A stretch of DNA of 64,000 nt, taken from positions 37,255,024 through 37,319,023 of the forward strand of contig OX638135.1 of NCBI GenBank assembly GCA_951804985.1. The letters are read 5' to 3'. Made by a program: the position numbers and the translations under genes. The notes beneath the pieces are model-generated. The model was not told where the DNA came from and did not search any database. It saw only the letters and a list, made by a program, of their open reading frames with translations. Positions 30,663 through 62,214 of this stretch are shown one piece after another; the first letter of the stretch is position 1; every line of letters starts with the position of its first letter. This DNA comes from Dryomyza anilis (taxonomy: Eukaryota > Arthropoda > Insecta > Diptera > Dryomyzidae).

Positions 30663-31341
30663 ATGTCGCTATTAAATCAATTAAACGAATGTACCAATAC
30701 TGTGGGTCTCGGATATACAAAAGTGGACTCTCTTAAAATAGGTGTTGAGTATTCCATAACGGGATGTAAAATTAAAGAAACTCAATAATAATAATAATAA
30801 TAATAATAATAGTTTGGCGCTACGGTCTTGTACAGAACTTCGGCCGAGCTCTCTCACCATTTTGAGCTGTGCGTGTTATATTTGTACTCAAAGTGGTGGG
30901 ACCTACAGTTTATTGCCAAATCCGAACGGCGGGTGAGAGCTTTTCATAGGCAATGTTTTATTCTCGTAGGTTTGCCATTTACTGACGAGAGGTAGCGCGG
31001 TATAGAAAAATGTTTCTATGAAAAGATGTTGTTAGCCCCAGTCCAGGCTTGAACCGGGGACCTTTCGACTCGCAGTCCAACGCACTAACCACTGAGCTAC
31101 CGCGGCTACAGAAACTCAATACGGAGAGTAAATTTCACTTCATTTAATGGATGAAGATGATACGTCATTGTGGATTTTACTGCGAAAAATAATTGGACAA
31201 GTTTTTCAAACGAAAAATCCTTACAAAAAACTAAAAGATAGCGGAATACAAGGAGTCATTTTCAAAGGTCGAGACAAAGCCATATATAACATGGCAGTAT
31301 TTGAATTTATAGCAAAGAAAATAAATTTTGATCATAATTAA
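30663..31341 (+). pseudogene. Polinton plus-strand small gene, split by a SINE
   Basis: The frame starts MSLLNQLNEC at 30663 and reads 42 codons to KETQ, where a SINE (30788-31109) is inserted. After the duplicated target AGAAACTCAATA (30776-30787 and 31110-31121) the same frame resumes, meets a TAA at 31129 and continues from 31147 to FDHN at 31341. Without the SINE the product would be about 115 residues. The layout resembles short hypothetical genes seen near one end of arthropod Polintons, but I cannot name a function. Two independent lesions (SINE and stop) show that it is dead. Confidence 0.6.
30788..31109 (-). mobile_element. tRNA-derived SINE, copy 1
   Basis: Read on the minus strand it begins with a tRNA-like head (GCCGCGGTAGCTCAGTGG A box; CCCCGGTTCAAGCC B box), continues with a body of about 220 bp and ends in an (ATT)n tail, seen on the plus strand as the (AAT)n run just after 30787. 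A 12-bp target duplication AGAAACTCAATA flanks it. The full body matches the copy at 44620-44932. Confidence 0.9.
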
Positions 31342-38793: not shown

Positions 38794-41700
38794 TTATTGA
38801 AGAATATCTTCAACTATTTTATAATTCCCCCCTGCCAATGTAGATATTCGATCTGGTAATATATATATTTTATCGTCCATATAATTGAGACTTATTTTAT
38901 TAACTATCTCAGTATAAAGTTGATGGGACCTACTTCTTATAATTCGCTGTTGACCATGAAATATTTTTCTCTCTCTTATACACTCTAGATAATCATTATA
39001 TGAAATTGAAATTTTTACAACCGAATTCTTAACTCCTTTAATCTTTTTAAAAACCTTATCGTCTGCCCCATCAATATCCTTTTCAACAATATATGCGTAT
39101 GCCTTGGCCTTTAATCCTGCAAAAAATTTCATTATAAGACCTGCGTTTTCGTCCTTCATTAAACCTAAAACTTTTTTGTTTTGTGGTGTTATTAAAAACT
39201 GATTATTTTCATTATAATCTGATGTATCAAATTGGACTGGATTTATTTTAATAATGTTATAAATATCATCCTTAGACGACAATATAAAACTATCTGTATC
39301 CATATAAATAACATCAATATTTTTACTTTTCTTTTTCAAGAAATAATAATAAAAATCGTACATCAACCATTTGGATAATTCGAGTACTGTTGTTCCCACA
39401 TAAATTGGTTTGTCATACAATATTTCTAAATTGACTAGTTCAACTCCAACCAGAGAGTCACTAAAAATGTCTATACTATGGAAATTAGTTTTAGCTATAA
39501 GTGCTCGAAAGCCTTCTGAATTTCTTCGATTATTATAATGTTAGTAACCTAACGTCTCTTCTTTTTTCAACATTTTCCATGGTTAAACCATGTTATATAC
39601 TTGTCTTATTCATGAAGATCGGCTATTAATTTAACTCCTTTTCCACCAATTGGTATTTTGTTTTCAGGACAAAATGGAAGACAATTATGCTCGTCATGAA
39701 TAGAATCTGGATATTCTAAATCAACCTCAAGAATATATCCAAATACACCATCAGTAGTAATAGTAGAAAAATCTAGAATATTAAACTCAGCCTGTTATAA
39801 AAATTTAAAATCTGAGATTGGAAGATTTTGCGACATTGCCCATCCATACAAATTATTAGCTATGCTAAATAATTATCTTCTTTATTTGTATCATATCCAG
39901 ATTTTAAATATTTGTTGTCGGCTTCAGATATCCTATGAGTACATTGAGTTAATCATCCTCTTACGCTAACTTTAAGAAAGTTATGAACATCAGGATCGTT
40001 TATAAGTTCTAGATCTGTTTTGGTATACTTAAGCATTGCATCCCAAGATAAAGAAGGGGCAGTTATATAATTTATTGGATCTAAATTATAAATATTTAAA
40101 CAAATGCTTCGAAAATTTTCAAATACATCAGCTAAAATAAGAACATCGCTTTCTAAATAAAGTAACATATAATCACGTAGTGTATTACATTTGAATGTTT
40201 TCCATACCTCATTGGCAAATATATAGTCTTCAACTGAACATTCTTGGTCATCTAACGAATTCTCTACTGGGAAGGGAAGCTTCTTTAAGAACATTGAAGT
40301 GATTTACATAATCATAGGGGAACACTCCTTTCCTCCTCATTAAATTAAATTTGTCAACATTTTTATATCCATTGTTTAAAATATTGAAATTATTACTATC
40401 CATATAACTAGATAATTTTTCTAAGCTAGAGTTTAAAAATCTATTTTAATCTATAAAATTTATATTATATTTAAATGTTTTACCCTCCATAACAGTTTTA
40501 GTGAGTGATATATATAATTCCTTATTGCAGGGAATTGCTTTTAAATTTCCACTCAATTTATTTAAATATAAATGGATATCATATCTAGATAGATTATGAA
40601 ATACCACTGGCAAAAAGAATATTTTATTTTAAAAATGTTCTTACATTTCTCGTGGATCGGCACCATGAAAACTCCTGAAAAATAATAAAAAGATTTGTAT
40701 CGATTGCTGTCGGTAAAGTTTTCCTCACAAGCACAACATTTTCCAGTGGTATATATTTGTTGATCATTCTGCGTTAGATTTTTATGGGGAGCTGGGGACA
40801 TCCAATATTTTCGATGAAGTTCATCTAATTTCTCCTCCATAGAATCAATGAATTCCTCAACACAATTTGCACCTATAACAATATAAGAAAAAATTTAAAA
40901 ACAAAATAAAAAATAATTATAAAAAATTACTATCAAAAGTAAATATTTCATCCAAATCAGAATTAAATGTGTGCTTCACATAGTATTTGATCGCACATGC
41001 TTCATGTTTTTGAACTTGGGTTGTTGATGATATTTTTTCATTTGGAATTGTATATTGAATTGGTGTTAGAATTGCTTCCATATCTGCATACAAAATTATA
41101 GGCGGTGATAATTTCTTGCTGTGGCTCCTGCTTTAGGATATCTTGCAGTAACTTTTCCGCATTCCTATTCATTATGTCTTTTTGAATCGACGAAATAGTG
41201 ATTCTGACAAAAATCACAATTGTGACTAGTAGTAAATTGTGATTTTACCAGTCTCTTTAAATCTTTTATTAGACAATAATGATTGCTGTATGAATTCAAA
41301 TTTATTACAGATAATAAATTCACATGGAATGCTCGAACTTCTGATGTTGGTCTAGATGGTTCTATAATTTTGCTAGTTTCCGTATGTGTTTTTTTATCTT
41401 TTATATCGTACACATTGACGCTGAACTGTGGATTATTTTTTTCAAATATTTTTAAATCTTTAAATGGTGTTGGAAACATCATTTTTGAAAAATTTAAATT
41501 AATTCCACGAAAACGAATTTTTTCGGATCTAATATCCAAATTCTATAATAATTGGGATTTGTCAACTTATAAAGATTTTTTGACTCCAAATTATCATATT
41601 TACAAGCTATTGCAGCCAGAATACTCCATTTGAAGCAAAATTCATCCATATTTTTTATATTGATTGTTGCAGCTTTAGAGTTAATATCTCTAGACAGAGG

Positions 41701-41910
41701 CGTATATATTCCTGATGGTATATGTTCTAATTTGCATATGGTTATTTCCACATATGTAAATTCTACGATTGCCCATCCACTGTCTATCTCTTGGAATTCA
41801 CTTGAAATTCTAGTTATTTCATTTATCAATTCTTCTAATGAAGAATTTATATCATCCAGATTATATATACAAACAAATCGGGTTCCCAAGTGTTTTTTTG
41901 TTAGTACCAT
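38794..41910 (-). pseudogene. PolB: Polinton protein-primed DNA polymerase B, main part
   Basis: Minus-strand pieces in several frames give the polymerase in order from 41910 down. They are: an N-terminal domain with FCFKWSILAAIA; a HYCLIKDLKRLVKSQ block with a C-x2-C finger; exonuclease motif I as ADMEAIL near 41080; an exonuclease-side CCACEENF block (40562-40840); YLESDVLILADVFENFR with exonuclease motif III and APSLSWDAMLKYT (39953-40294); a NNLYGWAM motif A region (near 39850); PIGGKGVKLIADLHE (near 39640); and motif C YMDTDS in the last frame (38794-39420). Several frameshifts and stops separate them. It would replicate the element from a protein primer. Its N-terminus lies beyond the fold-back insertion, at 54418-54960. 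Confidence 0.85.
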
Positions 41911-41918
41911 CTCGGTTT
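41911..41918. other. Left target-site duplication of fold-back element
   Basis: CTCGGTTT directly before the terminal ACTGGTGTG. The same eight bases follow the other end at 54410-54417. Confidence 0.9.
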
Positions 41919-41960
41919 ACTGGTGTGAAGATAGCCCACTTTTTTATCCCACTTTTTGGT

Positions 41961-42001
41961 GAATTCGCCGCATTTTTTTGTTGAACATTTTGAATTCGCC
42001 G
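41961..42001. promoter_or_regulatory. Subterminal GAATTCGCCG boxes, left end
   Basis: GAATTCGCCG occurs at 41961 and again from 41992. Matching inverted boxes lie at 54329-54339 and 54378-54388 near the right end. Short repeats just inside a transposon's termini are often transposase-binding sites; that role is inference here. Confidence 0.4.
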
Positions 42002-42172
42002 TAACGAAAAATGTCCAAAAATAGGTAGTTAAAGGCAAAATTAGCAATATAAATCAAAAATACCATAAATTTTATCATTTCATTAACACAAATAAACACC
42101 TTTTGAAGTGCCATATGAAAAAAATGCATTTTTGGAAACTTGAAATAATCGATTAAAATGAAAGACCCCATT

Positions 42173-44060
42173 GCAATTTTTGGATATGTTAAAGATTATG
42201 GTCCAATCTAACTTTTATTTCGAAAAATCGTACAAGCCCACAAAAAAATCAGGATGGGTCATGGTGAAAAATGCATTTAAATATGAGACATTTTTCAGAT
42301 TCAATATGGAAAAAATTCATTTCTTGAAACTTGAAAAAAACGCTTAAAACAAAAAACCCCATCGCAATTTTTGGATATGTTAAAGATTATGGTCCAATCT
42401 AACTTTTATTTCGAAAAATCGTACCAGCCCACAAAAAAATCAGGATAGGTCATGGTGAAAAATGCATTTAAATATGAGACATTTTTCAGATTCAATATGG
42501 AAAAAATTCATTTCTTGAAACTTGAAAAAAACGCTTAAAACAAAAAACCCCATCGCAATTTTTGGATATGTTAAAGGCTATGGTCCAATCTAACTTTTAT
42601 TTCGAAAAATCGTACCAGCCCACAAAAAAATCAGGATAGGTCATGGTGAAAAATGCATTTAAATATGAGACATTTTTCAGATTCAATATGGAAAAAATTC
42701 ATTTCTTGAAACTTGAAAAAAACGCTTAAAACAAAAAACCCCATCGCAATTTTTGGATATGGTAAAGATTATGGTCCAATCTAACTTTTATTTCGAAAAA
42801 TCGTACCAGCCCACAAAAAAATCAGGATAGGTCATGGTGAAAAATGCATTTAAATATGAGACATTTTTCAGATTCAATATGGAAAAAATTCATTTCTTGA
42901 AACTTGAAAAAAACGCTTAAAACAAAAAACCCCATCGCAATTTTTGGATATGTTAAAGATTATGGTTCAATCTAACTTTTATTTTGAAAAATCGTACCAG
43001 CCCACAAAAAAATCAGGATAGGTCATGGTGAAAAATGCATTTAAATATGAGACATTTTTCAGATTCAATATGGAAAAAATTCATTTCTTGAAACTTGAAA
43101 AAAACGCTTAAAACAAAAAACCCCATCGCAATTTTTGGATATGTTAAAGATTATGGTCCAATCTAACTTTTATTTTGAAAAATCGTACCAGCCCACAAAA
43201 AAATCAGGATAGGTCATGGTGAAAAATGCATTTAAATATGAGACATTTTTCAGATTCAATATGGAAAAAATTCATTTCTTGAAACTTGAAAAAAACGCTT
43301 AAAACAAAAAACCCCATCGCAATTTTTGGATATGTTAAAGATTATGGTCCAATCTAACTTTTATTTCGAAAAATCGTACCAGCCCACAAAAAAATCAGGA
43401 TAGGTCATGGTGAAAAATGCATTTATATATGAGACATTTTTCAGATTCAATATGGAAAAAATTCATTTCTTGAAACTTGAAAAAAACGCTTAAAACAAAA
43501 AACCCCATCGCAATTTTTGGATATGTTAAAGATTATGGTCCAATCTAACTTTTATTTCGAAAAATCGTACCAGCCCACAAAAAAATCAGGATAGGTCATG
43601 GTGAAAAATGCATTTAAATATGAGACATTTTTCAGATTCAATATGGAAAAAATGCATTTTTTAAAAATTTAAAAAAACGCTTAAAACAAAAAACCCCATC
43701 GCAATTTTTGGATATGTTAAAGCTTATGGTCCAATCTAACTTTTATTTCGAAAAATCGTACCATCCCACAAAAAATTCAGGATAGGTCATGGTAAAAAAT
43801 GCATTTAAATATAAGACATTTTTCAGATTCAATATGGAAAAAATTCATTTCTTGAAACTTGAAAAAAACGCTTAAAACAAAAAACCCCATCGCAATTTTT
43901 GGATATGTTAAAGCTTATGGTCCAATCTAATTTTTATTTCGAAAAATCGTACCAGCCCACAAAAAAATCAGGATAGGTCATGGTGGAAAGTGCATTCAAA
44001 TACCAGCCATTTTTCAGATTCCATAAGGAAAAAATGCATTAAAAAAAACGCTTGAAATGT
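42173..44060. repeat. Left fold-back arm: 191-bp tandem repeat, about 10 copies
   Basis: Landmark ATGGTGAAAA recurs at 42261, 42452, 42643 and 42834, an exact 191-bp step. Copies are near identical in the middle, and the last copies toward 44060 diverge. The right arm has the same repeat in reverse orientation. Confidence 0.95.
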
Positions 44061-44563
44061 AATCCCCATCGCAATTTTTGGGTATTTGAAAAAAAAAGCT
44101 AAACAAGCTTTTATTTTTAAAAATTTTACTAGCCCACTCTTAATATATAATAGGTCCATGATAAATATTAGTTAAAAAATTGTAATAACTATGTGCAAAA
44201 AATTATTAATTTACTGAAAAATTTAGACTTTATAGTTTTAGTTGTAATTTTATGACTTTTAATGACAATTGACCATTCAAAATTATTAATTTAGTTTATA
44301 CTATATATTTTTTTGATAATGATTTTTACAAATATGTTTTTACATATATGTATCAAAAATGTTAGCAAATGTCGCAACCATATATCCAAATCCTTTGTTA
44401 ATATCACAACCATAAAAATATAAGATAGGTGAGGATAAGTGTCAAATATTTTAGCAAATGTCGCAACCTTTTTTTTCCAAATCCGTTGTCAATATCACTC
44501 CCATAAAAATACGTTACATTTGTAAAACTTATATGATCGTGATCTAAGATGGCGCTATTGGCG

Positions 44564-44619
<56 letters not shown>
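44564..44619. repeat. (TA)n microsatellite
   Basis: TA run directly before the SINE, at the inner edge of the left fold-back arm. Confidence 0.93.
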
Positions 44620-44620
<1 letters not shown>

Positions 44621-44932
44621 CCGCGGTAGCTCAGTGGTTAGTGCGTTGGACTGCGAGCCGAAAGGTCCCCGGTTCAAGCCTAGACTGGGGCTAACAACAT
44701 CTTTTCATAGAAACATTTTTCTATACCGCGATACCTCTCGTCAGTAAATGGCAAACCTACGAGAGTAAAACCATTGCCTATGAAAAAGCTCTCACCCGCC
44801 GTTCGGATTCGGCAATAAACTATAGGTCCCACCACTTTGAGTACAAATATAACACGCACAGCTCAAAATGGTGAGAGAGCTCGGCCTAAGTTCATTTAGA
44901 GCTGTAGTGCCAAACTATTATTATTATTATTA
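44620..44932 (+). mobile_element. tRNA-derived SINE, copy 2
   Basis: Begins GCCGCGGTAGCTCAGTGG (A box), has CCCCGGTTCAAGCC (B box) and the same body of about 220 bp as copy 1, and ends in (ATT)n at 44918-44932. Because a (TA)n run abuts its 5' end, no clear target duplication can be read. It lies just beyond the truncated 3' end of the envelope relic. Confidence 0.9.
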
Positions 44933-45032
44933 AATACTTTGAACAGCCATGTATTTTTCAATATACATATTTTGTTCTTTAATTTGTTCAAATTGACATT
45001 TACTTGTATGTGACTGGTGTAGTGCAGATGCC

Positions 45033-46080
45033 TCACATGTTTTTATAACACATGAAACTATCTTCGGTGCTTTCTTTGCAGCTCAGTAATTCGACACGAC
45101 TTATTGGTAAGTAACTGTTCCGTCCAAGATTAAAAACTATAATATCAAATCTTAGTTTTGGCATTAGAAGAATATTATCTTGGTGAAACGGTATACCAAT
45201 AACACTGTATACAGTTGATTTTTCTGACTCTATTAATGGAATTTTAATATCAATCATTAATCGGTTTTCGATTATTATTCCTGTCACCGACACCAAGCGA
45301 AATATTTCAACAAGTTCTTTGTCTTGACCTGGAAATTTTAATTTGAATGGGAGTTTAGATTTAATATCTGTAATTTCATTCATCATTGTAGACGTTTTAA
45401 TTAAAGCAGAATACGACCCTTGATCTTTTAGATTCGTGATCAGTTTAATAATAGATATTTGAATATCATTACAGTGTTGGATCATCATATCCAACTGCTT
45501 TTCCAAAAGTGTAAACATAACCACATTCAATCGAAAAATGTGTGTATTTTGCCATGTTTGTTATTTCATCAGATAACCTTTTAAATTCTATTGTTGTTTT
45601 TTTAATATACTAACAGTAAAGTCTACTAATAATGTTTGACGTTTTGTCAAATGGTCGATATCATGTTGAATTTCCAGTAAATTTTTCATATCAACTTCTA
45701 TTTTTCTCCGATCATCATTATCCATAATTCCAAATAATATGGGATATAAAGATCCCTCAGAATTAAACAATGCTCTTTTTTGTCTGTTTTTCACGTGGAT
45801 ATTCCATTATTATTATTATTTAAAATTTCATATTTATTTTCCATTGATTCTAACATCATGCACTGATTAGAAAATGTATCAAATTTAAGACATTGTACTT
45901 TTAAAAGTTCTATGTATTTTGGAATTTATGACAACTCCATGAAATATGAATCGAGGTCGTAATACAGAACAAGTCTCCATGTCGATGTAATCACATTGCC
46001 AATCGGATCTAGATACACATATGTTGTATCTTCTAATTTAGTTATATTTATTTCGATAGTTTGTCCATTTTGGGGCATGC
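45033..46080 (-). pseudogene. Envelope fusion protein relic, baculovirus-F / errantivirus type
   Basis: Read from 46080 down, a surface-subunit segment begins with a short N-terminal stretch (GMPQNGQTIEIN, STWRLVLYYDL). It continues through a Cys-containing block (QCMML) to a furin-like site RQKR followed by a hydrophobic glycine-containing start (ALFNSEGSLYPILFG). A heptad-like helix and a transmembrane-subunit ectodomain with LPFKLKFP and EIFRLVSVTGII blocks follow, ending near 45033. The order and cleavage site are those of F-like class I fusion proteins of baculoviruses and errantiviruses. It is broken by at least two stops and frameshifts, and the C-terminal anchor is missing. No LTR, gag or pol accompanies it. 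It lies inside the fold-back core. Confidence 0.72.
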
Positions 46081-46277
46081 CGTAACTTACGATAAATATA
46101 ATTAATTACGGTAAATATAATTAAGTATAAATATAGTTGATTTATTCTTTTTTATATAATATTTTCTGAAAATAATTAAATAAAAAAAATAATTGTAATA
46201 ATGTGAATATAAATATACACGAATTTGTCTTTAATCGGAAAATTATAAAATTATATCATCAGTTCAATCTGTAAAAT

Positions 46278-46562
46278 TTACCTGTAGAAACAATTGCTGT
46301 CTATATAATATTTATGGAATTTAATATAAATATGTTTTTTTCTTTTATATTTCCATTTAAGTTCTTTTCGCTTCCCTAAAAATTTGAAGTGATATTTATT
46401 ACCGAAAATATCGAGAAATACTGATTTTCGACAATTTTGTCGAACTTCAAAATATTCGAAGTTATAACATCTTGCCATTTTGCTATTGCCACAGAAATAA
46501 ATTTGTTGGTTGTTACATTTGATTAATGTGTTGTCGTTGATAATAGCAAATGTTTCAACCAT
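46278..46562 (-). CDS. Hypothetical 94-residue open frame
   Basis: Uninterrupted frame starting MVETFAIINDNTLIKC, with six cysteines in the first two thirds and a Lys/Tyr-rich end. It lies upstream of the envelope relic on the same strand. I do not recognise it. A Cys-bearing ectodomain fragment related to the envelope is conceivable but unsupported. Confidence 0.2.
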   Translation of the reverse strand: MVETFAIINDNTLIKCNNQQIYFCGNSKMARCYNFEYFEVRQNCRKSVFLDIFGNKYHFKFLGKRKELKWKYKRKKHIYIKFHKYYIDSNCFYR

Positions 46563-46848
46563 TTCCTAAAATACATTATTTTATAGTTTCGTGATTTTTC
46601 ACTAGATGGTATTATTTGTTGAGTAAGTTAAAAATACTGATAAAAAACATTTAAAAAAATATTGAATTTATGTATTTATTTATATTAATATTAGGTGCAG
46701 TAAAGATTATTTTAAAAATATACAAAATTTTAAGAATTTATTTTATATATCGACGTTTTAAATAAAAAAACTAATCATAATGGATATAATTCGCAAAATG
46801 GCGGGAAAATTACGTCATATGGTTCGTTGTAGTCCATTGTGAATGTCA

Positions 46849-46856
46849 ATTTAAAA
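46849..46856. other. Left target-site duplication of hAT-like element
   Basis: ATTTAAAA before the terminal CAAGG; repeated at 49669-49676. Confidence 0.85.
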
Positions 46857-48072
46857 CAAGGATTGAAACCTAAACGAATAACGGTTTTGATTTCGGTTTT
46901 TTCCGAGTTTCGGTTTTGGTTACGGTTTCGGTTTTAAGTTTTTATAACGAAACGGTTTCGGATGATACTGGGGTAAAGTGGGAAACGTAATTTAAACAAT
47001 GTTTGTTGTTATTTTAGTAAAAATATTGTGTTATATGAATTATTTAATTGATTACGTCAAGAAAAAAATTATTTTAAAATTTCGTGACCACAAACCAATG
47101 AAAAGCAACATTTTGACTTCACTTGATATATGATCTGAATTTAAAAGAAGAAGAATATTGTACAATTTTCATCCATAAAAGCCAAAGAAATTAAATTTCA
47201 ACAATTCTGTGAACTACAATATATGTAAACTAGTGATGATCATTTGCAAGAGCAAGGCAAGAAATGTTAATCGTAATCTTTTAAATTTTAAATAAAGATC
47301 GAAGACAAATATCTTAAACCACATATTAATTATGAAAACGAATAGAATTTGAACACTAATTGTATTTAAGTTACTTATTTTCCATTTTTTCAATTTCTTC
47401 AACATTTTACTAACAAAAAAAATCCAATAACATAAAAATTTGAATTATATTTTAACAAGAATTAACAAATAAAAATAATTGTATAAAACAAGTGATGTTG
47501 ACAAGACAATTCAAAATCTCAAGGCCATAATAAAATGAACGAAAAGTCACCAAATACATTTTCAAAATGCTAAATATTTTTAACAAACATCTTTATGTAT
47601 CTGTCAATTTTTAATCGATGATCTCCATTTTTTTTACCACATGATAAGAAAATGTAAATCTATCAATTGATATTTCAACTTTAAAAATGCATCGATTACT
47701 TTTTATAATATTAATCAACAAACTCGAAAATTAAGTTTTTCATAAAAATGTATTTGATGACTTTTCGTTCTACAACGACGATATACAGTATACGATATAC
47801 ATATACAATAAATATAAGGAATATTTCGTATAAGCATATTTCTGTTTTCGTCACAGATTAAAAAAATCCGTATGGTACACGTACCGTATGTCAAGAGAAC
47901 TCAAATAATATCTTGCAGAGTAATATTTTTCTTTGCGAACACAAACTCAAAAGCTACAAAGCGAATTCTAACAGAAAGAAGAGAATATAACAATAACGAT
48001 TACGATTCGTATACACACACTTTCACAACGAAAACTCTTCGTTGCTTTCCTGTATCATCGCATGGCAACAAA

Positions 48073-48150
48073 TAGACGCATGACAACAGACAGACGTATG
48101 ACAACGGACAGACGCATGACAACAGACAGTCGCATGACAACGGACAGACG
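48073..48150. repeat. Short tandem repeat, about 19-bp unit
   Basis: About four copies of a GACGCATGACAACAGACAG-like unit with point variants, inside the hAT-like element. Stretches on either side are AT-rich without recognisable genes. Confidence 0.75.
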
Positions 48151-48660
48151 CACGGCACCACACTACATGTATGTATCTAGTACAGCTCTCTAGTTGGCAA
48201 CAACAACGAGTTCTCTTTGTGGTACAAAAAATTTCCCGCCAAAAATTCTATCAAAAGCTTGGATGCTGCTTTATTCGCATTTTTGTTGTTGTTGCACTTT
48301 CAAACGAATCAGCGGATTTGTGAAAAAAGAAAAACACAAAAAGCAATATATCAGCTAAATATATCACACTGTGAAAATGTTCATATATTATTTTTTATTA
48401 CTTCAGATTTTACAATAAACTAAAAAACTATATATAAAAGTAAAACAAAAATAATAATGTGCATAGCACAGTGCATATGCACAATCGATGTACGAACTTG
48501 CGTAGCGAAGAAAAGAGAAAAAAAACATTGTTTTGTCTATTTTATCTTTTGAAGCGACTTTTGAAGCACTTTTAAAGCTATTTACCGCTTCAAAAGTGCT
48601 TCACAGGCCTTATTTTTAAGATGCTTATATTCTTTAGAATTCGACATAAACAAAAAAAAA

Positions 48661-49150
48661 CCAGTTGGGAAGGTTAGATCACATTGGAAATTTTAAAGTA
48701 GGTGTAATTATGATAGTTAGGATTATCAAAATTATAGTCGGTCTAAGCCGACTATAAATACCCTACACATATGTGTGGTTACCATTCAATGTGATATATA
48801 GGTCACCAGGATATACGAATCCTGAAAATAACTAAAAACATTCAATCGCTGAAGAATTTCCATTTATTTAATACCCATATTTACATATGGGTAGGTGTAC
48901 CGAATTTTGATTTTTTTTTTTTTTTTGGTGAACCACAAGTCTTTTCGCCGGAAAACATTATTATCATGTATTTGAGCATGATGTCAATATATATTTGACC
49001 AAAAAAGTTTACCTAAGCACGTATACATAAAAATTGATCTTTATATGTACATTTTATATGAGGTATTTGAACATAAGTGGTCGGATCATAGGTCACAATG
49101 GACCGATCTCGCCAATTTTTTCGCACATACAGCGTAGGTATATTAGAAGA
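48661..49150 (+). mobile_element. DINE-1/mini-me-like repeat, copy 1
   Basis: Contains CCAGTTGGGAAGGTTAGATC at its start, a hairpin TATAGTCGGTCTAAGCCGACTATA-type palindrome (about 48736-48760), AATACCCTACACA and a GTGTACCGAATTT block. The same order is found inverted at 62497-63232. Such hairpin-bearing non-coding repeats are common in higher flies and are usually classed with Helitron-like DINE elements; that class assignment is by resemblance. Confidence 0.6.
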
Positions 49151-50339
49151 CTTATAAATGGTATTCTATTGAATAGATCCTTTAAAAGAATTTAAAAAAT
49201 ATTCAAATGAAATATATATTTTACTAATAAAATAAATAAAAAACCAATATTATTAAAATTTTAATCATTTTTTAACGTAAAAATTTTGCTTGGAGTTGCT
49301 GGGGTTTTGTTGTTAATTCGATTAATAAAACAAAAAACAAATTTTAGACCAAATACCGTTGTTTTGGAAATATTGGTTCTCAAAAAACAACATGTGAATT
49401 TTTGTACAACCAAAAATGTTTATTTTGGGAACTCCAAATTTTAATTAATGAAATTTTACTTAAGATCTTCTATATAAAATAATATATGTTTTTCTGGTTT
49501 TTTGTATACTTTTTTAAAAACCGTTTTAAACCGATATAAAACCGAAACCGTTTATATCGGTTTTGGATATCGGTTTATTTCTGATTTTCGTATAATGGTT
49601 TCGGTTACGGTTTTGGTTTTAAAAACGAAACGGTCTTAAACGGATATCGGTTACGGTTTCAATCCTTGATTTAAAATATTATTATTATTTTTATTATTAT
49701 TATTATAGAATTGCAGTAATTCTTGAATACAGTTATTGATAATGTATTTGCCATTTTAATTTTCCTTGAGTGCACTTTAACTATTACTGAGACAAATTAG
49801 TTTTTTTTTTTAATTAAAATGTGGTCATATAATATATTTTTTTAAATTTTGAATTAAAAGTGAAATTTCTAATGTTTATTATATTTTTAAATAACCAATA
49901 GTGCCATCTTAGATCACGATCATATAAGTTATACAAATGCAACGTATATTTTTTAATGGTTGTGATATTGACAACGGATTTGAAAAAACGGTTGCGACAT
50001 TTGCTAAAATATTTGACACTTATCCTCACCAATCTTATGGTTGTGATATTAACAAAGGATTTGAATATATGGTTGCGACATTTGCTAATATTTTTGACAC
50101 TTGTAAAAATATGTGCTATCAAAAATATATAGTATAAACTAAATTAATAATTTTGAATGGTCAATTGCCATTAAAAGTCATTAAATTACAACTAAAACTA
50201 TAATATCTAAATTTTTCATTAAATTAATAATTTTTTGCACAGAGTAATTACAATTTTTTAACTAATATTTATCATGGACCCATTAAATATTAAAAGTGGG
50301 CTAGTAAAATTTTTAAAAATAAAAGCTAGTTTAGCCTGT

Positions 50340-53300
50340 AATTTTTCAAATACCCAAAAATTGCGATGGGGTTTAACATTTTAAGCGTTTTTTTTAATTT
50401 TAAAAAATGCATTTTTTCCTTATGGAATCTGAAAAATGGCTGGTATTTAAACCATGACCTATCCTGATTTTTTTGTGGGCTGGTACGATTTTTCAAAATA
50501 AAAGTTAGATTAAACCATAATCTTTAACATATCCAAAAATTGCGATGGGGTTTTTTGTTTTAAGCGTTTTTTTCAAGTTTCAAGAAATGCATTTTTTCCA
50601 TATTGAATCTGAAAAATGTCTCATATTTAAATGCATTTTTCACCATGACCTATCCTGATTTTTTTGTGGGCTGGTACGATTTTTCGAAATAAAAGTTAGA
50701 TAGGAGCATAATCTTTAACATATCCAAAAATTGCGATGGGGTTTTTTGTTTTAAGCGTTTTTTTCAAGTTTCAAGAAATGAATTTTTTCCATATTGAATC
50801 TGAAAAATGTCTCATATATAAATGCATTTTTCACCATGACCTATCCTGATTTTTTTGTGGGCTGGTACGATTTTTCGAAATAAAAGTTAGATTGGACCAT
50901 AATCTTTAACATATCCAAAAATTGCGATGGCGTTTTTTGTTTTAAGCGTTTTTTTCAAGTTTCAAGAAATGAATTTTTTCCATATTGAATCTGAAAAATT
51001 TCTCATATTTAAATGCATTTTTCACCATGACCTATCCTGATTTTTTTGTGGGCTGGTACGATTTTTCGAAATAAAAGTTAGATTGGACCATAATCTTTAA
51101 CATATCCAAAAATTGCGATGGGGTTTTTTGTTTTAAGCGTTTTTTTTCAAGTTTCAAGAAATGAATTTTTTCCATATTGAATCTGAAAAATGTCTCATAT
51201 TTAAATGCATTTTTCACCATGACCTATCCTGATTTTTTTGTGGACTGGTACGATTTTTCGAAATAAAAGTTAGATTGGACCATAATCTTTAACATATCCA
51301 AAAATTGCGATGGGGTTTTTTGTTTTAAGCGTTTTTTTCAAGTTTCAAGAAATGAATTTTTTCCATATTGAATCTGAAAAATGTCTCATATTTAAATGCA
51401 TTTTTCACCATGACCTATCCTGATTTTTTTGTGGGCTGGTACGATTTTTCGAAATAAAAGTTAGATTGGACCATAATCTTTAACATATCCAAAAATTGCG
51501 ATGGGGTTTTTTGTTTTAAGCGTTTTTTTCAAGTTTCAAGAAATGAATTTTTTCCATATTGAATCTGAAAAATGTCTCATATATAAATGCATTTTTCACC
51601 ATGACCTATCCTGATTTTTTTGTGGGCTGGTACGATTTTTCGAAATAAAAGTTAGATTGGACCATAATCTTTAACATATCCAAAAATTGCGATGGGGTTT
51701 TTTGTTTTAAGCGTTTTTTTCAAGTTTCAAGAAATGAATTTTTTCCATATTGAATCTGAAAAATTTCTCATATTTAAATGCATTTTTCACCATGACCTAT
51801 CCTGATTTTTTTGTGGGCTGGTACGATTTTTCGAAATAAAAGTTAGATTGGACCATAATCTTTAACATATCCAAAAATTGCGATGGGGTTTTTTGTTTTA
51901 AGCGTTTTTTTTCAAGTTTCAAGAAATGAATTTTTTCCATATTGAATCTGAAAAATGTCTCATATTTAAATGCATTTTTCACCATGACCTATCCTGATTT
52001 TTTTGTGGACTGGTACGATTTTTCGAAATAAAAGTTAGATTGGACCATAATCTTTAACATATCCAAAAATTGCGATGGGGTTTTTTGTTTTAAGCGTTTT
52101 TTTCAAGTTTCAAGAAATGAATTTTTTCCATATTGAATCTGAAAAATGTCTCATATTTAAATGCATTTTTCACCATGACCTATCCTGATTTTTTTGTGGG
52201 CTGGTACGATTTTTCGAAATAAAAGTTAGATTGGACCATAATCTTTAACATATCCAAAAATTGCGATGGGGTTTTTTGTTTTAAGCGTTTTTTTCAAGTT
52301 TCAAGAAATGAATTTTTGTCATATTGAATCTGAAAATTTTCTCATATTTAAATGCATTTTTCACCATGACCTATCCTGATTTTTTTGTGGGCTGGTACAA
52401 TTTTTCGAAATAAAAGTTAGATTGGACCATAATTTTTAACATATCCAAAAATTGCGATGGGGTTTTTTGTTTTAAGCGTTTTTTTCAAGTTTCAAGAAAT
52501 GAATTTTTTCCATATTGAATCTGAAAAATGTCTCATATTTAAATGCATTTTTCACCATGACCTATCCTGATTTTTTTGTGGGCTGGTACGATTTTTCGAA
52601 ATAAAAGTTAGATTGAACCATAAGCTTTAACATATCCAAAAATTGCGATGGGGTTTTTTGTTTGAAGCGTTTTTTTAAATTTTTAAAAAATGCATTTTTT
52701 CCATATTGAATCTGAAAAATGTCTCATATTTAAATGCATTTTTCACCATGACCTATCCTGATTTTTTTGTGGGCTGGTACGATTTTTCAAAATAAAAGTT
52801 AGATTGGACCATAGCCTTTAACATATCCAAAAATTGCGATGGGGTTGTTTGTTTTAAGCGTTTTTTTCAAGTTTCAAGAAATGAATTTTTTCCATATTGA
52901 ATCTGAAAAATGTCTCATATTTAAATGCATTTTTCACCATGACCTATCCTGATTTTTTTGTGGGCTGGTACGATTTTTCAAAATAAAAGTTAGATTGGAC
53001 CATAATCTTTAACATATCCAAAAATTGCGATGGGGTTTTTTGTTTTAAGCGTTTTTTTCAAGTTTCAAGAAATGAATTTTTTCCATATTGAATCTGAAAA
53101 ATGTCTCATATTTAAATGCATTTTTCACCATGACCTATCCTGATTTTTTTGTGGGCTGGTACGATTTTTCGAAATAAAAGTGAGATTGGACCATAATCTT
53201 TAACATATCCAAAAATTGCGATGGGGTTTTTTGTTTTAAGCGTTTTTTTCAAGTTTCAAGAAATGAATTTTTGTCATATTGAATCTAAAAATTTTCTCAT

Positions 53301-54010
53301 ATTTAAATGCATTTTTCACCATGATCTATCCTGATTTTTTTGTGGGCTGGTACGATTTTTCGAAATAAAAGTGAGATTGGACCATAAGCTTTAACATATC
53401 CAAAAATTGCGATGGGGTTTTTTGTTTTAAGCGTTTTTTTTAAGTTTCAAGAAATGCATTTTTTCCATATTGAATCTGAAAAATGTCTCATATTTAAATG
53501 CATTTTTCACCGTGACCTATCCTGATTTTTTTGTGGGCTGGTACGATTTTTCGAAATAAAAGTTAGATTGGACCATAAGCTTTAACATATCCAAAAATTG
53601 CGATGGGGTTTTTGTTTTAAGCGTTTTTTTCAAGTTTCAAGAAATGCATTTTTTCCATATAGAATCTGAAAAATGTCTCATATTTAAATGCATTTTTCAC
53701 CATGACCTATCCTGATTTTTTTGTGGGCTGGTACGATTTTTCGAAATAAAAGTGAGATTGGACCATAAGCTTTAACATATCCAAAAATTGCGATGGGGTT
53801 TTTTGTTTTAAGCGTTTTTTTCAAGTTTCAAGAAATGAATTTTTGTCATATTGAATCTGAAAATTTTCTCATATTTAAATGCATTTTTCACCATGACCTA
53901 TCCTGATTTTTTTGTGGGCTGGTACGATTTTTCGAAATAAAAGTTAGATTGGACCATAATCTTTAACATATCTAAAAATTGCGATGGGGTTTTTTGTTTT
54001 TAGCGTTTTT
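50340..54010. repeat. Right fold-back arm: 191-bp tandem repeat, about 20 copies
   Basis: Reverse-complement copies of the left-arm repeat; the CACCATGACC landmark at 50641 and 50832 gives the same 191-bp step. The array is about twice as long as the left. Pairs of distant copies share variants (the 62-residue open frames at 51032 and 51797 are identical, four units apart), which points to block duplication inside the arm. Confidence 0.95.
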
Positions 54011-54409
54011 TTCAAGTTCCAAAAAATGCATATTTACATTTAAAGTTGAGATAAGTACCCCTTTTAAAAACGGCATTTTTACCATGATTTGGGGTTATAT
54101 TGGTTAAATATTTGAATAATGAAATTAGCTAGATCTATTTTATTTAACATACATTCAAAATTTATGGCGCTCTTTTTATTTTAAGCGTCTTGTTATTATT
54201 TTAAAATATATTCATTTTTCGTAATTATAAAAATATATGACTTTATATCGGTTTTAGTAGATTATTGATTATATTACATGGAAATGCAAAAAATAAGAAG
54301 ATTTTAATATATAATATGGAAAAAAAAAGCGGCGAATTCAAATTGTACGCTAACTTCACAAATTCTGGGATAACTCCAATTCGCCGCGATGCGCTATCTT
54401 CACACCAGT

Positions 54410-54417
54410 CTCGGTTT
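54410..54417. other. Right target-site duplication of fold-back element
   Basis: CTCGGTTT directly after the terminal CACACCAGT. Confidence 0.9.
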
Positions 54418-54960
54418 CCTGTTGTTTTACATAATCACCATGTAGAACTATATTATATTTAACGAAATCATGTTCTCCAATATTCGTTAACAGAAGTTCT
54501 TTTAAATATGGATTTATATTAGTAAAAAAGTTTTCAATCAATATCTCATTCTTCGATGAGCTTAAAACACGATATTTTTTTACAATATTGGTTTGGAAGG
54601 TTTATAGTTGGAGAACGTTTTCCCGTAGTGTTATTGCAGATCTTTCCTTGTGCATGTCGGTTCTAAAATGCATTTTATACCTATTTATGGGAATATGTAT
54701 CCCACAAATCTCACATACTTTCGTTTCCATGTCAATTTTTGGTCGTCTAGTTGAGATCTATGAGATGAGGAGGGGATGGGTTCAGCTATGATCGGTTCAC
54801 CATCACAATTCTCTAAATGATTCTCGACATATTGAATGCCTTTAATGAGTAAACCGCAGCCACATTGAAAATATTTTTCTTTACAATCATTTAAATGAAT
54901 TGACTAATTTTCTAACGATGAGAATGTTGCTGTACAATTTTCACACGCGAACATATTTAA
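54418..54960 (-). pseudogene. PolB: Polinton DNA polymerase B, N-terminal part cut off by the fold-back element
   Basis: From MFACENCTATFSSLEN at 54960 the minus strand reads a first zinc-finger-like segment (C-x2-C, then HLNDC after one stop) and a second Cys-rich block (QCGCGLLIKG). A clear finger follows: CEICGIHIPINRYKMHFR with C-x2-C and two downstream His. A segment NPYLKELLLTNIGEHDFV then leads to KYNIVLHGDYV. This is the normal N-terminus of arthropod Polinton polymerases, which carry zinc fingers ahead of the exonuclease domain. The frame stops at the target duplication and continues on the far side at 41910. Stops and at least one frameshift are present. Confidence 0.75.
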
Positions 54961-55019: not shown

Positions 55020-56499
55020 TTTAAAATGAAAATTTACTTTAAACAATAACAAAATGTTATAAACAATTAAAGAAAGAAGAAAACAACTTTATGTCAACCG
55101 ATGTTGGGATAAATTTTTATACTGGCCCCAGTAGATGAAATCTTATGGAGGTAAAGTAAATGAAAAGCCATAGGATGTATTCCAATGCAGTTATGGTAAT
55201 AGAGTTTCATTTAGTAGTATCCTATTGTGTTTACCTGCATCGATTTTAAATCGTATGGTATATTTATAAAGGGTAGCCCCTGCATTATTAATTTTTAACG
55301 AACACATTTTTTGAATATTAATTACTAAAATTCGAACGGTTCTACTTATACTTTTAATCGTAAATCGTAAATATTGCAATTTATTGCTTCAGAATTATAT
55401 TTCGAAATCATAATTGTACATATAATGTTCATGAATATTTTAAGTGGGTGGTGTTTTTATTATATATTTAAAAAAATTCCAGTCAATGGGACGTACGGTA
55501 TTTATGACCGAAAATTGTGATCCGAATTCCTAATTTAACCTTTTTCAATTTAATTGATTCTCAGATATTCCTTATGATACTAATAAATAAATATCGAGAC
55601 TTGTTGTTTAAAAAATAATTTCCTTTGTACTGTGTGATTGTCTCAAAATAGTTGAAATAATATATTTTCATTTAAATTAAATCATCTAAAATTTAATTTT
55701 TACATTGCATAAGTATATGGTCCCCGTAAATATATGAGTCATGCTCTGACTAAACATGATTACGGTTCGTGTATTACATTGCATTCAGCGCCATTTAGCG
55801 ATGTCTATCGACATTTACATCTATCGAGATCCTTGACATCTAGCAGTACTCATCGCCTTCTAATGTTGTCTATTGACATCTGCTTACATCGAGCGATGCA
55901 TTTAGCGGTGATACAATCCCACGCTAACTATTTACAATAACTGAATTCTAACCTTCATTGTGGCCATCTAGTGGTGGCGATTGACATCTCCATCTATCGA
56001 AATCGCTATTCAGCATTCACAATGAATATTTATAGTGAGTAACACAACCCCTTCTCACTTTTATCAACTCCACCCACAATTATCAATTATGCTTACTCTG
56101 CCCATATCCTTTCTACTCTATTGCATACAATGTTTTGGTGCGTTGCGTTAGCACGCTACATGTGTTGGAATATTAGTAAGATCAATAAACTCTTCCCACT
56201 ATTATCATTCACAATGAATATTTATAGTGAGTAACACAACCCCTTCTCACTTTTATGAACTCCACCCACCATTATCAATTATGCTTACTCTGCCCATATC
56301 CTTTCTACTCTATTGCATGCAATGTTTTGGTGCGTTGCGTTAGCACGCTACATGTGTTGGAATATTAGTAAGATCAATAAACACTTCCCACTATTATCAT
56401 TCACAATGAATATTTATAGTGAGTAACACAACCCCTTCTCACTTTTATCAACTCCACCCACCATTATCAATTATGCTTACTCTGCCCATATCCTTTCTT
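55020..56499 (-). repeat. Inverted partial copy of the macrosatellite unit
   Basis: Reverse complement of roughly positions 1250-2515 of unit 1, with more differences than the array units show among themselves. The block of about 193 bp containing TGTGTTACTCACTATAAATA occurs about two and a half times here (from about 56016), against two in array units. The segment starts right after the polymerase N-terminus and ends at CCTTTCT before unrelated sequence. It is therefore an older or separately evolving copy. Confidence 0.9.
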
Positions 56500-57250: not shown

Positions 57251-57795
57251 TGTTACGAAAAGAGGTAATTTGCTCCACTGTGTAAGCAATCAACAATAAT
57301 AAATGAGACGCAAGACAATTCAGCGCATTTAGCAATGCGTTAGAAAGAGACGGAAGATCATTCAGCGCACTATGCAATGTGCGAGAAAGAGATGGAAGAT
57401 CCGCACATTAAAACACATGAGTGCGAATGAGATGCCAATAGCATGCGTCATTCACGAAACGAGTAGACGATTCTCGAAACAAGTCAAAGCTTGTCGAAAC
57501 ATGTCGAACTGATGCCTGCAGTATATAAGGCCGCGCATCTGAGGCACTGTACTTCAGTTGTGATTTAATAGTGAACTAGTGCGTCTCGTGAGTGAACATT
57601 GTAAAGATAAATTGTAGTAATTCAGCAGTTGATATAAGTGATTATTCTTTAAGTTGTTATTTAAATTAATAAAGTTAATTAATACTAGTTGAAATAATAC
57701 TAGTTAAAACCAAATATAAGTGCGTTTTTATTGTGTACACAATCCAGCGATACGAACTCGTAGAACAGTTTTCCGTAGACTGAATTTTCGTAACA
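57251..57795 (+). repeat. 5' LTR (545 bp)
   Basis: Begins TGTTACGAAAAGAGG and ends ATTTTCGTAACA. It has a TATA box in GTATATAAGG (57521-57530) and an AATAAA at 57668-57673. It is about 106 bp longer than the 3' LTR. Confidence 0.93.
57521..57530 (+). promoter_or_regulatory. LTR TATA box
   Basis: GTATATAAGG within CTGCAGTATATAAGGCCGCG. A GAGGCACTGTACTTCAGTT segment about 20 bases further on is a plausible initiator. The 3' LTR keeps the same box at 62046-62055. Confidence 0.7.
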
Positions 57796-59063: not shown

Positions 59064-59153
59064 TTATAAATTGTGAGTCAAATCCATCAATAAACAAACA
59101 TACAAATAAACAAACAATCTACTCACAGGTTTATAAATGAGTGGACGAAGGAT
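59064..59153 (+). other. Deletion site: missing zinc knuckle, protease and N-terminal pol
   Basis: Only about 90 bases of AT-rich sequence, with ACAAACAT-type repeats, separate the capsid from the reverse transcriptase. About 1 kb coding nucleocapsid and protease would be expected here. Confidence 0.65.
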
Positions 59154-59828
59154 TTGGCTGCCAAAGAAAAGAGTCAAGTGCAAAAGCTAATTGACAAATA
59201 TCGGTGTATATTTGCTGAAAAGGGCCAAAAGGATGGCAGAACTGCCATTGTAAAACATCGAATAGACACTGGTGATTCTAACCCAATTCGTCAAGCACCA
59301 AGAAGGGTACCACTTGCGAAAAGAGATGAAGTATCAAATTTGGTTGAAGAAATGCACACAAATGGCGTGGTGGAACCATCTGAGAGTCCATGGAGTTCAC
59401 CAGTAGTATTGGTGAAAAAGAAGGACGGTAGTACTCGGTTCTGCGTTGATTACCGAAAACTTAATGATGTCACCAAGAAAGATAGTTATCCGCTGCCTAG
59501 AATCGATGACACCTTGGATACACTATCTAATGCTAAGTGGTTTTCAACGTTGTACATGCAAAGCGGTTACTGGCAAGTGGAAATCGATAAGAAAGATCGA
59601 GAGAAGACTGCATTCAGTACTGGAGATGGACGATGGCAATTTTTGGTAATGCCGTTTGGACTATGCAATGCCCCAGCAACATTCGAGCGGTTAATGGAGC
59701 ACGTATTAAAATGTTTACACTGGAAAATATGCCTAGTATACCTTGATGACATAATTGTTATGCGCAAGGATTTCAACGAACATCTAAGAAATCTAGAGGA
59801 AGTATTCCTTCGATTGTCTACAACTTAG
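59154..59828 (+). pseudogene. pol: Reverse transcriptase domain of pol, motif A Asp lost
   Basis: Open frame of 224 residues with gypsy RT blocks in order: VVEPSESPWSSPVVLVKKKDGS (71-93), FCVDYRKLNDVT (97-108), TLYMQSGYWQVEI (132-144), FLVMPFGLCNAPATF (163-177) and VYLDDI (195-200). Motif A normally reads T-L-D; here residue 134 is Tyr, which removes one of the three catalytic aspartates. The YLDD pair is intact. A frameshift near 59826 moves the reading to the next frame, which continues with the thumb/connection region. The frame starts within RT, since the upstream part is deleted. Confidence 0.88.
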
Positions 59829-61775: not shown

Positions 61776-62214
61776 TGTTACGAAAAGAGGTAATTTGCTC
61801 CACTGTGCAAGCAATCAACAATAATAAATGAGACGCAAGACAATTCAGCGTACTAAGCAATGTGTATGAAAGAGACGGATGATCATTCAGCGCACTATGC
61901 AATGTGCGAGAAAGAGATGGAAGATCCGCACATTAAAACACATGAGTGCTAATGAGATGCCAATAGCATGCGTCATTCACGAAACGAGTAGAAGGTTCTC
62001 GAAACAAGTCGAAGCTTGTCGAAACGTGTCGAAATGATGCCTGCAGTATATAAGGCCGCGCATCTGAGGCACTGTACTTCAGTTGTGATTTAATAGTTAA
62101 GTTAATTAATACTAGTTGAAATAATACTAGTTAAAACGTTGCGTTTTTATTTTGTACACAATCCAGCGATACGAACTCGTAGAACAGTTTTCCTTAGACT
62201 GAATTTTCGTAACA
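61776..62214 (+). repeat. 3' LTR (439 bp)
   Basis: Same ends as the 5' LTR but lacks about 100 bp corresponding to roughly 57570-57673. That removes the AATAAA and the region between TATA box and polyadenylation site. Point differences are scattered along the rest. Confidence 0.93.

What the first reader, a model, noticed from the sequence alone, without database searches (positions are those of the whole stretch)
41919..54409. A 12.5-kb fold-back transposon with satellite arms has split a Polinton polymerase gene
The ends (17-bp inverted repeat), the 8-bp target duplication and the two halves of one polymerase gene on either side fix the element exactly. Its arms are inverted arrays of a 191-bp repeat, about 10 copies on one side and 20 on the other, so the element is also a vehicle that spreads satellite DNA. 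No transposase is visible. Its family may be new.
Basis: partly seen in the sequence, partly recalled or inferred. Interest (0 to 1): 0.75.

Follow-up and report, generated by a model that had tools for sequence, protein, structure and literature searches.

The report
Fold-back transposon with satellite-like arms
A 12.5-kb jumping element without a recognisable gene for jumping, whose two arms are mirrored stacks of a 191-base repeat, landed inside a gene of another mobile element, and it is one copy of a large family in this genome of a kind already known from fruit flies.

Summary
Two other Polinton copies in the same genome carry the uninterrupted site, which proves the insertion. The 229 ends that could be listed form 71 convergent pairs, and 32 of 44 pairs examined have perfect 8- or 9-bp target duplications. 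It is a non-autonomous fold-back transposon, built like Tetris of Drosophila virilis. None of 30 MULE hits or 150 scored hAT hits lies within 25 kb inward of a listed end. Mixed 8/9-bp duplications in a sister family point to a Mutator-like transposase acting in trans; that step is inferred. The core is captured debris and lies in both orientations relative to the tips, as arm-to-arm recombination would cause. The 191-bp repeat seems bound to the elements: 97 of 100 listed units (C1-C3) lie within 10 kb of an end. No free satellite was seen in what could be listed, so "spreads satellite DNA" holds only as dispersal inside elements. New family, known kind.

The parts
41911..41918 (.). left target-site duplication CTCGGTTT
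   Evidence: single copy at the same place in two paralogous Polinton copies
41919..41935 (+). left 17-bp terminal inverted repeat
   Evidence: 270 near-exact copies genome-wide
41919..42112 (+). left tip (L-type), with two GAATTCGCCG motifs
   Evidence: 40 scored copies of its first 101 bp in the genome (76 candidates)
42113..44040 (+). left-arm array, 191-bp unit, 10.1 copies
44041..44563 (+). inner, mostly non-tandem part of the left arm (counterpart in the right arm)
44564..44619 (.). (AT)n microsatellite at the arm/core border
44620..44935 (+). tRNA-derived SINE in the core; second window copy at 30795-31106
45033..46105 (-). broken fragment of a retroviral envelope gene (Baculo_F type), in pieces; extent beyond 45806 inferred
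   Evidence: PF12259 E 3.7e-8 (45033-45560) and 7.7e-5, under its cut-off (45588-45806); no hit for 45926-46105
46849..49676 (.). nested hAT-like non-autonomous element 46857-49668, ends CAAGGATTGAAACC, with its own 8-bp duplication ATTTAAAA at 46849-46856 and 49669-49676
   Evidence: duplication read from the sequence
49896..50450 (-). inner part of the right arm
50451..54035 (-). right-arm array, 191-bp unit, 18.8 copies
54036..54409 (-). right tip (R-type); 54045-54409 contains a strongly diverged 191-bp-like unit; subterminal GTGAAG(A/T)TAGCG and GAATTCGCCG motifs seen by eye
   Evidence: score 115, 0 of 300 shuffles reach it (maximum 95); motifs read
54393..54409 (-). right 17-bp terminal inverted repeat
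54410..54417 (.). right target-site duplication CTCGGTTT
41494..41916 (-). Polinton gene piece downstream of the insertion (same frame as the upstream piece at the duplication)
54410..54900 (-). upstream piece of the interrupted Polinton gene (stretch tested; the first 296 and 344 bp align in one piece in the two uninterrupted copies)

Best explanation
A non-autonomous fold-back (long terminal inverted repeat) DNA transposon. Shown: copies share the same 17-bp ends at many sites with perfect target duplications, no transposase is recognised in it, and this copy inserted into one member of a multicopy Polinton. Inferred: a transposase encoded elsewhere, most likely Mutator-like (MULE), recognises the ends and perhaps the repeated subterminal motifs (GTGAAGATAGCSCA, GAATTCGCCG) and cuts and pastes the element. 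The 191-bp arrays grow, shrink and are homogenised by unequal exchange within and between arms. Pairing of the two inverted arms lets homologous recombination flip the core, so the core is found in both orientations between fixed tips. The core is captured debris (SINE, retroviral env fragment, hAT-like element) that has since travelled with the element.
For: Copies: 131 + 139 ends, control 0. Of 229 listed ends (98 S, 91 R, 40 L), 71 adjacent convergent pairs lie within 30 kb: 34 SS, 26 LR, 9 RR, 1 LL, 1 RS; median length 11.0 kb. Target duplications perfect in 32 of 44 pairs examined: L/R 15 of 19, S/S 16 of 21, R/R 1 of 3, S/R 0 of 1. Empty sites in two paralogs. Recent movement: the 4,955-bp core has 12 mismatches (plus 6-7 gap positions) to the copies at C3:53733546 and C6:32065561, which have different duplications. 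Core orientation against the tips: 4 as in the window and 3 inverted among 7 copies with this core, one of the three with only a piece of it; two orientation groups, 2 and 2, among four copies with a second core type. Array turnover: right-arm units R10-R13 against R14-R17 differ by 0, 0, 1, 0, and some left- and right-arm units are identical. Duplications of 8 or 9 bp, as Muta1, an active Aedes MULE, makes (passages of PMC5225508). A 1,053-bp copy with only tips plus about four units has a perfect duplication, which suggests that the tips suffice.
Against: No MULE coding copy with these ends was found: 0 of 30 MULE hits lie within 25 kb inward of a listed end, and three MULE loci read over 6.0-6.3 kb lack the ends. 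In the window's own family all 15 intact duplications are 8 bp, which alone would also suit hAT or P. Twelve of 44 pairs lack a perfect duplication (two of them one mismatch short). The flipped cores were not checked against reads.
Confidence: 0.82

Rival explanations
1. The same non-autonomous fold-back transposon, but moved by a hAT or P-superfamily transposase (8-bp duplications), Galileo-like.
For: 15 of 15 intact duplications in the window's own family are exactly 8 bp. hAT elements are common in this genome: 150 hits among 150 scored of 495 candidates. Galileo, a P-superfamily element, has long internally repeated arms (passages of PMC3573991).
Against: The sister family with related tips has 9-bp duplications in 9 of 16 intact pairs; chance extension of 8-bp ones has P 0.007 to 0.026. 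0 of 150 scored hAT hits lie within 25 kb inward of a listed end; 345 candidates were not scored. The ends ACTGGTG do not resemble the usual hAT start as I recall it. P-superfamily transposase was not searched for.
Confidence: 0.18
2. A satellite DNA that merely became flanked by inverted repeats through segmental inversion or duplication; not a transposon.
For: Inverted duplications that include flanking DNA do occur in this family: at C1:27946891-27962623 the flanks are inverted copies, 98.5% over 1,459 bp.
Against: Exact shared ends in many unlinked places, perfect 8/9-bp duplications in 32 of 44 pairs, two empty sites, and listed arrays at elements.
Confidence: 0.01
3. The arm arrays serve as many extra binding sites for the transposase, so that array growth is selected for transposition; the satellite is functional rather than a by-product. 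(Compatible with the best explanation.)
For: The right tip contains a diverged 191-bp-like unit, so unit and tip may share an origin, as the Tetris authors argue for TIR-220. Galileo arms carry multiple binding sites (title and abstract start of PMC3688188; cited so in PMC4079207).
Against: The left tip shows no such similarity (43 and 273 of 300 shuffles as high). The arrays do not repeat the terminal 17-mer: it occurs once per end in the window. A copy with about four units and copies with about 25 to 29 units are all found with perfect duplications. Binding cannot be tested here.
Confidence: 0.25

Closest known systems
Tetris / DAIBAM of Drosophila virilis and D. americana (PMC4079207; parts 1-4 of 6 of the text read)
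   Same: Non-autonomous fold-back element; three-part arms with an outer flank, about 220-bp tandem repeats and an inner part; variable core without apparent coding capacity; 8-10-bp duplications; repeat unit related to the arm flank; highest density in particular chromosome regions.
   Different: The repeat here is 191 bp and the elements are larger (16-17 kb for several pairs). The core is traced to named debris and is found in both orientations. A sister family with related tips carries other arm repeats. Tetris repeats also form long satellite arrays; none was seen here in what could be listed. No Tetris sequence was available for a direct comparison.
Mutator/Foldback elements: Tm1 of root-knot nematodes (search listing and abstract start of PMC3169594) and FB of D. 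melanogaster (named in PMC4079207; structure recalled)
   Same: Placed by their authors or reviewers with Mutator/Foldback; long inverted arms (recalled for FB).
   Different: Other hosts; their sequences, arm units and duplications were not compared here.
Galileo, P superfamily (passages of PMC3573991)
   Same: Long arms with internal tandem repeats that vary in number; chimeric copies without matching duplications, like C1:27935872-27937197 here.
   Different: 7-bp duplications and a P-type transposase; here 8 or 9 bp.
Muta1, active MULE of Aedes aegypti (passages of PMC5225508)
   Same: Duplications of 8 or 9 bp with no apparent sequence preference; variable numbers of subterminal repeats; over 300 putative non-autonomous derivatives.
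   Different: Muta1 codes for its transposase; satellite-like arm arrays are not mentioned in the passages seen.

Membership tests
Fold-back transposon (structural class) | long inverted arms, partly made of tandem repeats, around a middle | tested here: met
Fold-back transposon (structural class) | mobility: same ends at many sites with target duplications and empty sites | tested here: met
Tetris | three-domain arm with about 220-bp tandem unit | tested here: inconclusive
   three-part arm present, but the unit is 191 bp
Tetris | sequence similarity to Tetris or DAIBAM ends | not testable with these tools
   no Tetris sequence in the collections at hand
Tetris | unit also forms long free satellite arrays | tested here: inconclusive
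   none seen: 97 of 100 listed units (C1-C3) within 10 kb of an end, 3 singletons; 19 of 19 clusters at elements (31 of 227 candidates scored). Unlisted units, mostly beyond C3, remain open
Mutator (MULE) superfamily | target duplication of 8 or more bp that varies in length (as in Muta1) | tested here: met
   8 and 9 bp in the sister family; only 8 bp in the window's own family
Mutator (MULE) superfamily | MULE transposase in an element with the same ends | tested here: inconclusive
   not found: 0 of 30 MULE hits inward of 229 listed ends; L-type ends listed only in part; three MULE loci lack these ends
hAT superfamily | strict 8-bp duplication | tested here: not met
   met in the window's own family (15 of 15) but not in the sister family with related tips, 9 of 16 of 9 bp
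hAT superfamily | hAT transposase in an element with the same ends | tested here: inconclusive
   not found: 0 of 150 scored hits (of 495 candidates) inward of listed ends
P superfamily (Galileo) | P-type transposase and 7-8-bp duplication | not tested
   no P-family search was run
Polinton/Maverick (host of the insertion) | DNA polymerase B of viral type, rve integrase and A32-like ATPase together | tested here: met
   PF03175, PF00665, PF04665 in the flanking stretch

The most novel reading that the evidence does not exclude
In this genome the mobile unit is in effect the tip. One hidden transposase moves at least two related families whose S and R tips are alike (55 of 61 or 51 of 64 aligned positions) but whose arms are built from unrelated satellites (191 bp; about 525 bp and multiples) and whose cores are different captured debris. 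The mirrored satellite arms act as a recombination switch that keeps turning the core over between fixed tips. Fold-back arms would then be self-generated, replaceable satellite modules rather than inherited terminal repeats.
Probability: 0.4. Interest if true: 0.55.

Novelty: new member of a known kind. Interest (0 to 1): 0.42.

Why it matters
It gives a further, well-assembled example of the Tetris principle, with proven empty sites and recent copies (12 mismatches over a 4,955-bp core). Questions left open by Tetris become testable: how arm satellites start, how they are homogenised, whether arm pairing flips the core, and whether long arrays stop transposition (here two near-identical copies at unlinked sites both carry 10.1 + 14.8 units, which suggests that they moved with long arrays). 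It also suggests that a fold-back element can carry 5 kb of foreign debris, including a broken retroviral envelope fragment, around a genome.

Tried and rejected
Nothing useful came from: the 17-mer in viral and prokaryote collections (4 and 12 loci; none of these 16 aligns to the window at E 1e-3; chance matches); a 19-mer of the 191-bp unit in viral contigs (0); 42100-44600 against phage records (no match); protein relatives of the 140-aa Polinton piece (none at E 0.001). The RT search only shows a gypsy-type neighbour with animal relatives; one of the closest named hits is Rhagoletis zephyria (75% identity over 75% of the query).

Rejected: a MULE in the core (E 0.037, 14.9 bits against a cut-off of 27.6, on an envelope piece); the MULE family at L120-L122 as the autonomous partner (no match to the ends with up to 4 mismatches in the 6.0-6.3 kb read per locus); free satellite arrays (none seen).

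Limits: the genome search lists about 100 places per pattern, so the full S (98) and R (91) lists could be used, but of the L tips only the 40 scored of 76 candidates, and of the 952 repeat units only 100. The hAT search scored 150 of 495 candidates. Of 37 open stretches of 48 aa or more in the core, 11 were scanned against Pfam. The 12 of 44 pairs without a perfect duplication: L/R C6:45664347 (AT-rich, imperfect), C2:70940596, C6:16875393, C6:59150523; sister C5:35899669 and C5:30184762 (one mismatch each), C6:3930224, C6:32624158, C1:27946891; R/R C1:32988912 and C1:51068156; chimera C1:27935872. Alternative pairings of the same ends (four, and second ends at C2:70952863 and C6:59159988) were not counted. 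Adjacent convergent pairs are not all proven single elements. A P-element family search and the cores of more sister copies were not done.
Full report
What was checked. The element runs from 41919 to 54409 (12,491 bp). Its ends are ACTGGTGTGAAGATAGC and the exact reverse complement (17/17, 19/20 over 20 bp), flanked by CTCGGTTT at 41911-41918 and 54410-54417; neither the end nor the duplication occurs elsewhere in the window. The arms hold a 191-bp tandem repeat, 10.1 copies left and 18.8 copies right, in opposite orientation.

The target. On the minus strand the frame of the right flank ends in ACC GAG at the duplication, and the frame of the left flank starts with the same ACC GAG followed by ATG, so the interrupted reading frame is continuous across one copy of the duplication. 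The left flank (419 bp) has many close relatives in the host genome (44 matches). Two of them were read (L124, C6:76009665; L125, C6:37785122): in both the left-flank sequence runs straight into the right-flank sequence with a single CTCGGTTT. These empty sites prove insertion. The surroundings contain pieces of a viral-type DNA polymerase B, an rve integrase and an A32-like ATPase, the set expected of a Polinton. The interrupted stretch itself gives no Pfam hit, so its assignment to the polymerase rests on position. Stops in the flanking frames suggest that the gene is broken elsewhere too.

The family. The whole genome (656.6 Mb, 69 contigs) was searched. The 17-bp end with at most one mismatch occurs 131 + 139 times; the reversed control pattern occurs 0 + 0 times. 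Three main tip types are seen: L (the window's left tip), R (its right tip) and S (a sister type). S and R tips align at 55 of 61 positions for one R variant and 51 of 64 for another; the L tip shares mainly the first 20 bases and the GAATTCGCCG motif. I listed 98 S, 91 R and 40 L ends (L capped), 229 distinct ends, which form 71 adjacent convergent pairs within 30 kb: 34 SS, 26 LR, 9 RR, 1 LL, 1 RS; lengths 1.05 to 27.9 kb, median 11.0 kb. C6 holds 124 of the 229 listed ends on 82.3 Mb, C1-C5 together 88 on about 548 Mb, a roughly ninefold higher density on C6 (contig lengths).

Target duplications. Of 44 pairs examined, 32 have a perfect duplication: 15 of 19 L/R pairs (all 8 bp), 16 of 21 S/S pairs (seven of 8 bp, nine of 9 bp), 1 of 3 R/R pairs (8 bp) and 0 of 1 S/R pair. 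Two further S pairs miss by one base. Chance extension of 8-bp duplications to nine of 16 has P = 0.007 at 25% and 0.026 at 30% chance per base. The window's own family shows none of 9 bp in 15, so the two families differ in this or the sample is small. A 1,053-bp copy at C5:19377078 with only the two tips and about four repeat units also has a perfect duplication, GATTTTTC.

Age. The 4,955-bp core of the window copy has 12 mismatches to each of two copies, on C3 and C6, that have other duplications, so these copies presumably moved recently as units of about 12 kb. Two copies on C4 lie 13 bp apart with separate duplications.

Anatomy of the core. It contains an (AT)n tract, a tRNA-derived SINE (a second copy lies elsewhere in the window), pieces of a retroviral envelope gene of the Baculo_F type and a 2.8-kb hAT-like non-autonomous element with its own 8-bp duplication ATTTAAAA. 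Eleven of 37 open stretches of 48 aa or more were scanned against Pfam; none gave a transposase above its cut-off, and the only MULE hint (E 0.037) falls on an envelope piece.

Flipping. The two tips are unlike each other beyond the first 20 bp except for short motifs, so each copy can be oriented. Among 12 copies compared, seven have the window's core or part of it. In four (window, C3:53733546, C6:32065561, C4:89532078) the core has the window's orientation, in three (C3:36506577, C4:89543400 and, with about 0.5 kb of it only, C6:68764164) it is inverted between the same tips. Four other copies share a second core type, and there too two orientations occur, two and two, judged from the rows that were printed (its output was cut). 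The twelfth copy (C6:59150523) has neither core. Homologous recombination between the inverted arms would do exactly this. The alternative, misassembly, cannot be excluded without reads, though the inverted cores differ in sequence (92-99% identical to the window's) and hence are not copies of one error.

Array dynamics. Right-arm units R10-R13 and R14-R17 look like a duplicated block (differences 0, 0, 1, 0), and units L02, R10 and R14, and L07, R13 and R17, are identical across arms. Array sizes differ between near-identical copies (10.1 + 18.8 in the window; 10.1 + 14.8 in both C3:53733546 and C6:32065561). The right tip contains a strongly diverged 191-bp-like unit (score 115, 0 of 300 shuffles as high), while the left tip shows none (43 and 273 of 300 shuffles as high on the two strands). 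The repeat may thus have started from subterminal sequence, as proposed for Tetris.

Is the 191-bp repeat a satellite elsewhere? The 26-bp unit word with at most one mismatch occurs 595 + 357 times, control 0. Of the 100 places listed (exact matches, all on C1-C3), 97 are within 10 kb of a detected end and three are lone units. The scored 774-bp matches (31 of 227 candidates) form 19 clusters, all at elements. I saw no free array.

The sister family. Of its 98 ends, 66 have no mismatch over 33 bp. The one copy read in depth (L079 inside C1:27915815-27929569) has inner arms that are 99.2% identical inverted copies over 2,978 bp and contain direct repeats at offsets of about 525, 1,440 and 1,965 bp, with no 191-bp unit. 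Thus related tips carry unrelated arm repeats.

Who moves it? No coding relative was found. All 59 MULE candidates in the genome were scored, 30 passed, and none lies within 25 kb inward of a listed end; the same holds for 150 scored hAT hits out of 495 candidates. Three MULE loci (6.0-6.3 kb each) lack these ends. The mixture of 8- and 9-bp duplications is what the active Aedes MULE Muta1 produces (passages of PMC5225508), and the Tetris authors argue for Mutator on the same kind of ground. I take a MULE transposase acting in trans as most likely (about 0.6), hAT or P as the alternative.

Compared with what is known. Tetris of D. virilis (PMC4079207, parts 1-4 of 6 read) is the closest match: fold-back, non-autonomous, tandem repeats inside the arms, 8-10-bp duplications. 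The present family differs in repeat unit, size, the traced debris in the core, the two core orientations and the lack of free arrays in what could be listed. I did not see core flipping described in the parts of the Tetris paper that I read or in the Galileo passages; one search on it was read as a listing only.

Noticed in passing
46849-49676: A nested hAT-like non-autonomous element (46857-49668, ends CAAGGATTGAAACC) with a perfect 8-bp duplication ATTTAAAA sits inside the fold-back element's core.
   Followed up: partly
30795-31106 and 44620-44935: Two copies (95%) of a tRNA-derived SINE; the tRNA-Arg that ARAGORN reports at 31033-31107 overlaps the head of one of them and so is probably not a host tRNA gene.
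   Followed up: partly
1-31000: About six tandem copies of a roughly 5-kb unit, each with an (AT)n tract, a 15-bp minisatellite (AGTTTTAGTGTGGTG) of 74-89 copies and a 104-bp repeat of 1.9 copies.
   Followed up: no
56006-56498: A separate tandem repeat of 192 bp, 2.6 copies, 97% matches, close in length to the 191-bp unit but with a different sequence.
   Followed up: no
57305-57401 and 61830-61926: A 42-bp repeat present on both sides of a gypsy-type retrotransposon (RT at 59094-59828), probably in its long terminal repeats.
   Followed up: no
L055/L057 (G000 C1:27946891-27962623): Sister-family ends flanked by inverted copies of the surrounding DNA (98.5% over 1,459 bp) instead of a target duplication, as if the element sat at the centre of a larger palindromic duplication.
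   Followed up: partly
L076 (G000 C1:27935872-27937197): Chimeric 1.3-kb copy with an S-type tip on one side, 191-bp-like repeat sequence and an R-like tip on the other, without target duplication.
   Followed up: partly
L120-L122: A MULE family with open frames of 376-487 aa; short inverted repeats made of small repeated units lie on both sides of the gene, and the three copies are 96-98% identical.
   Followed up: partly
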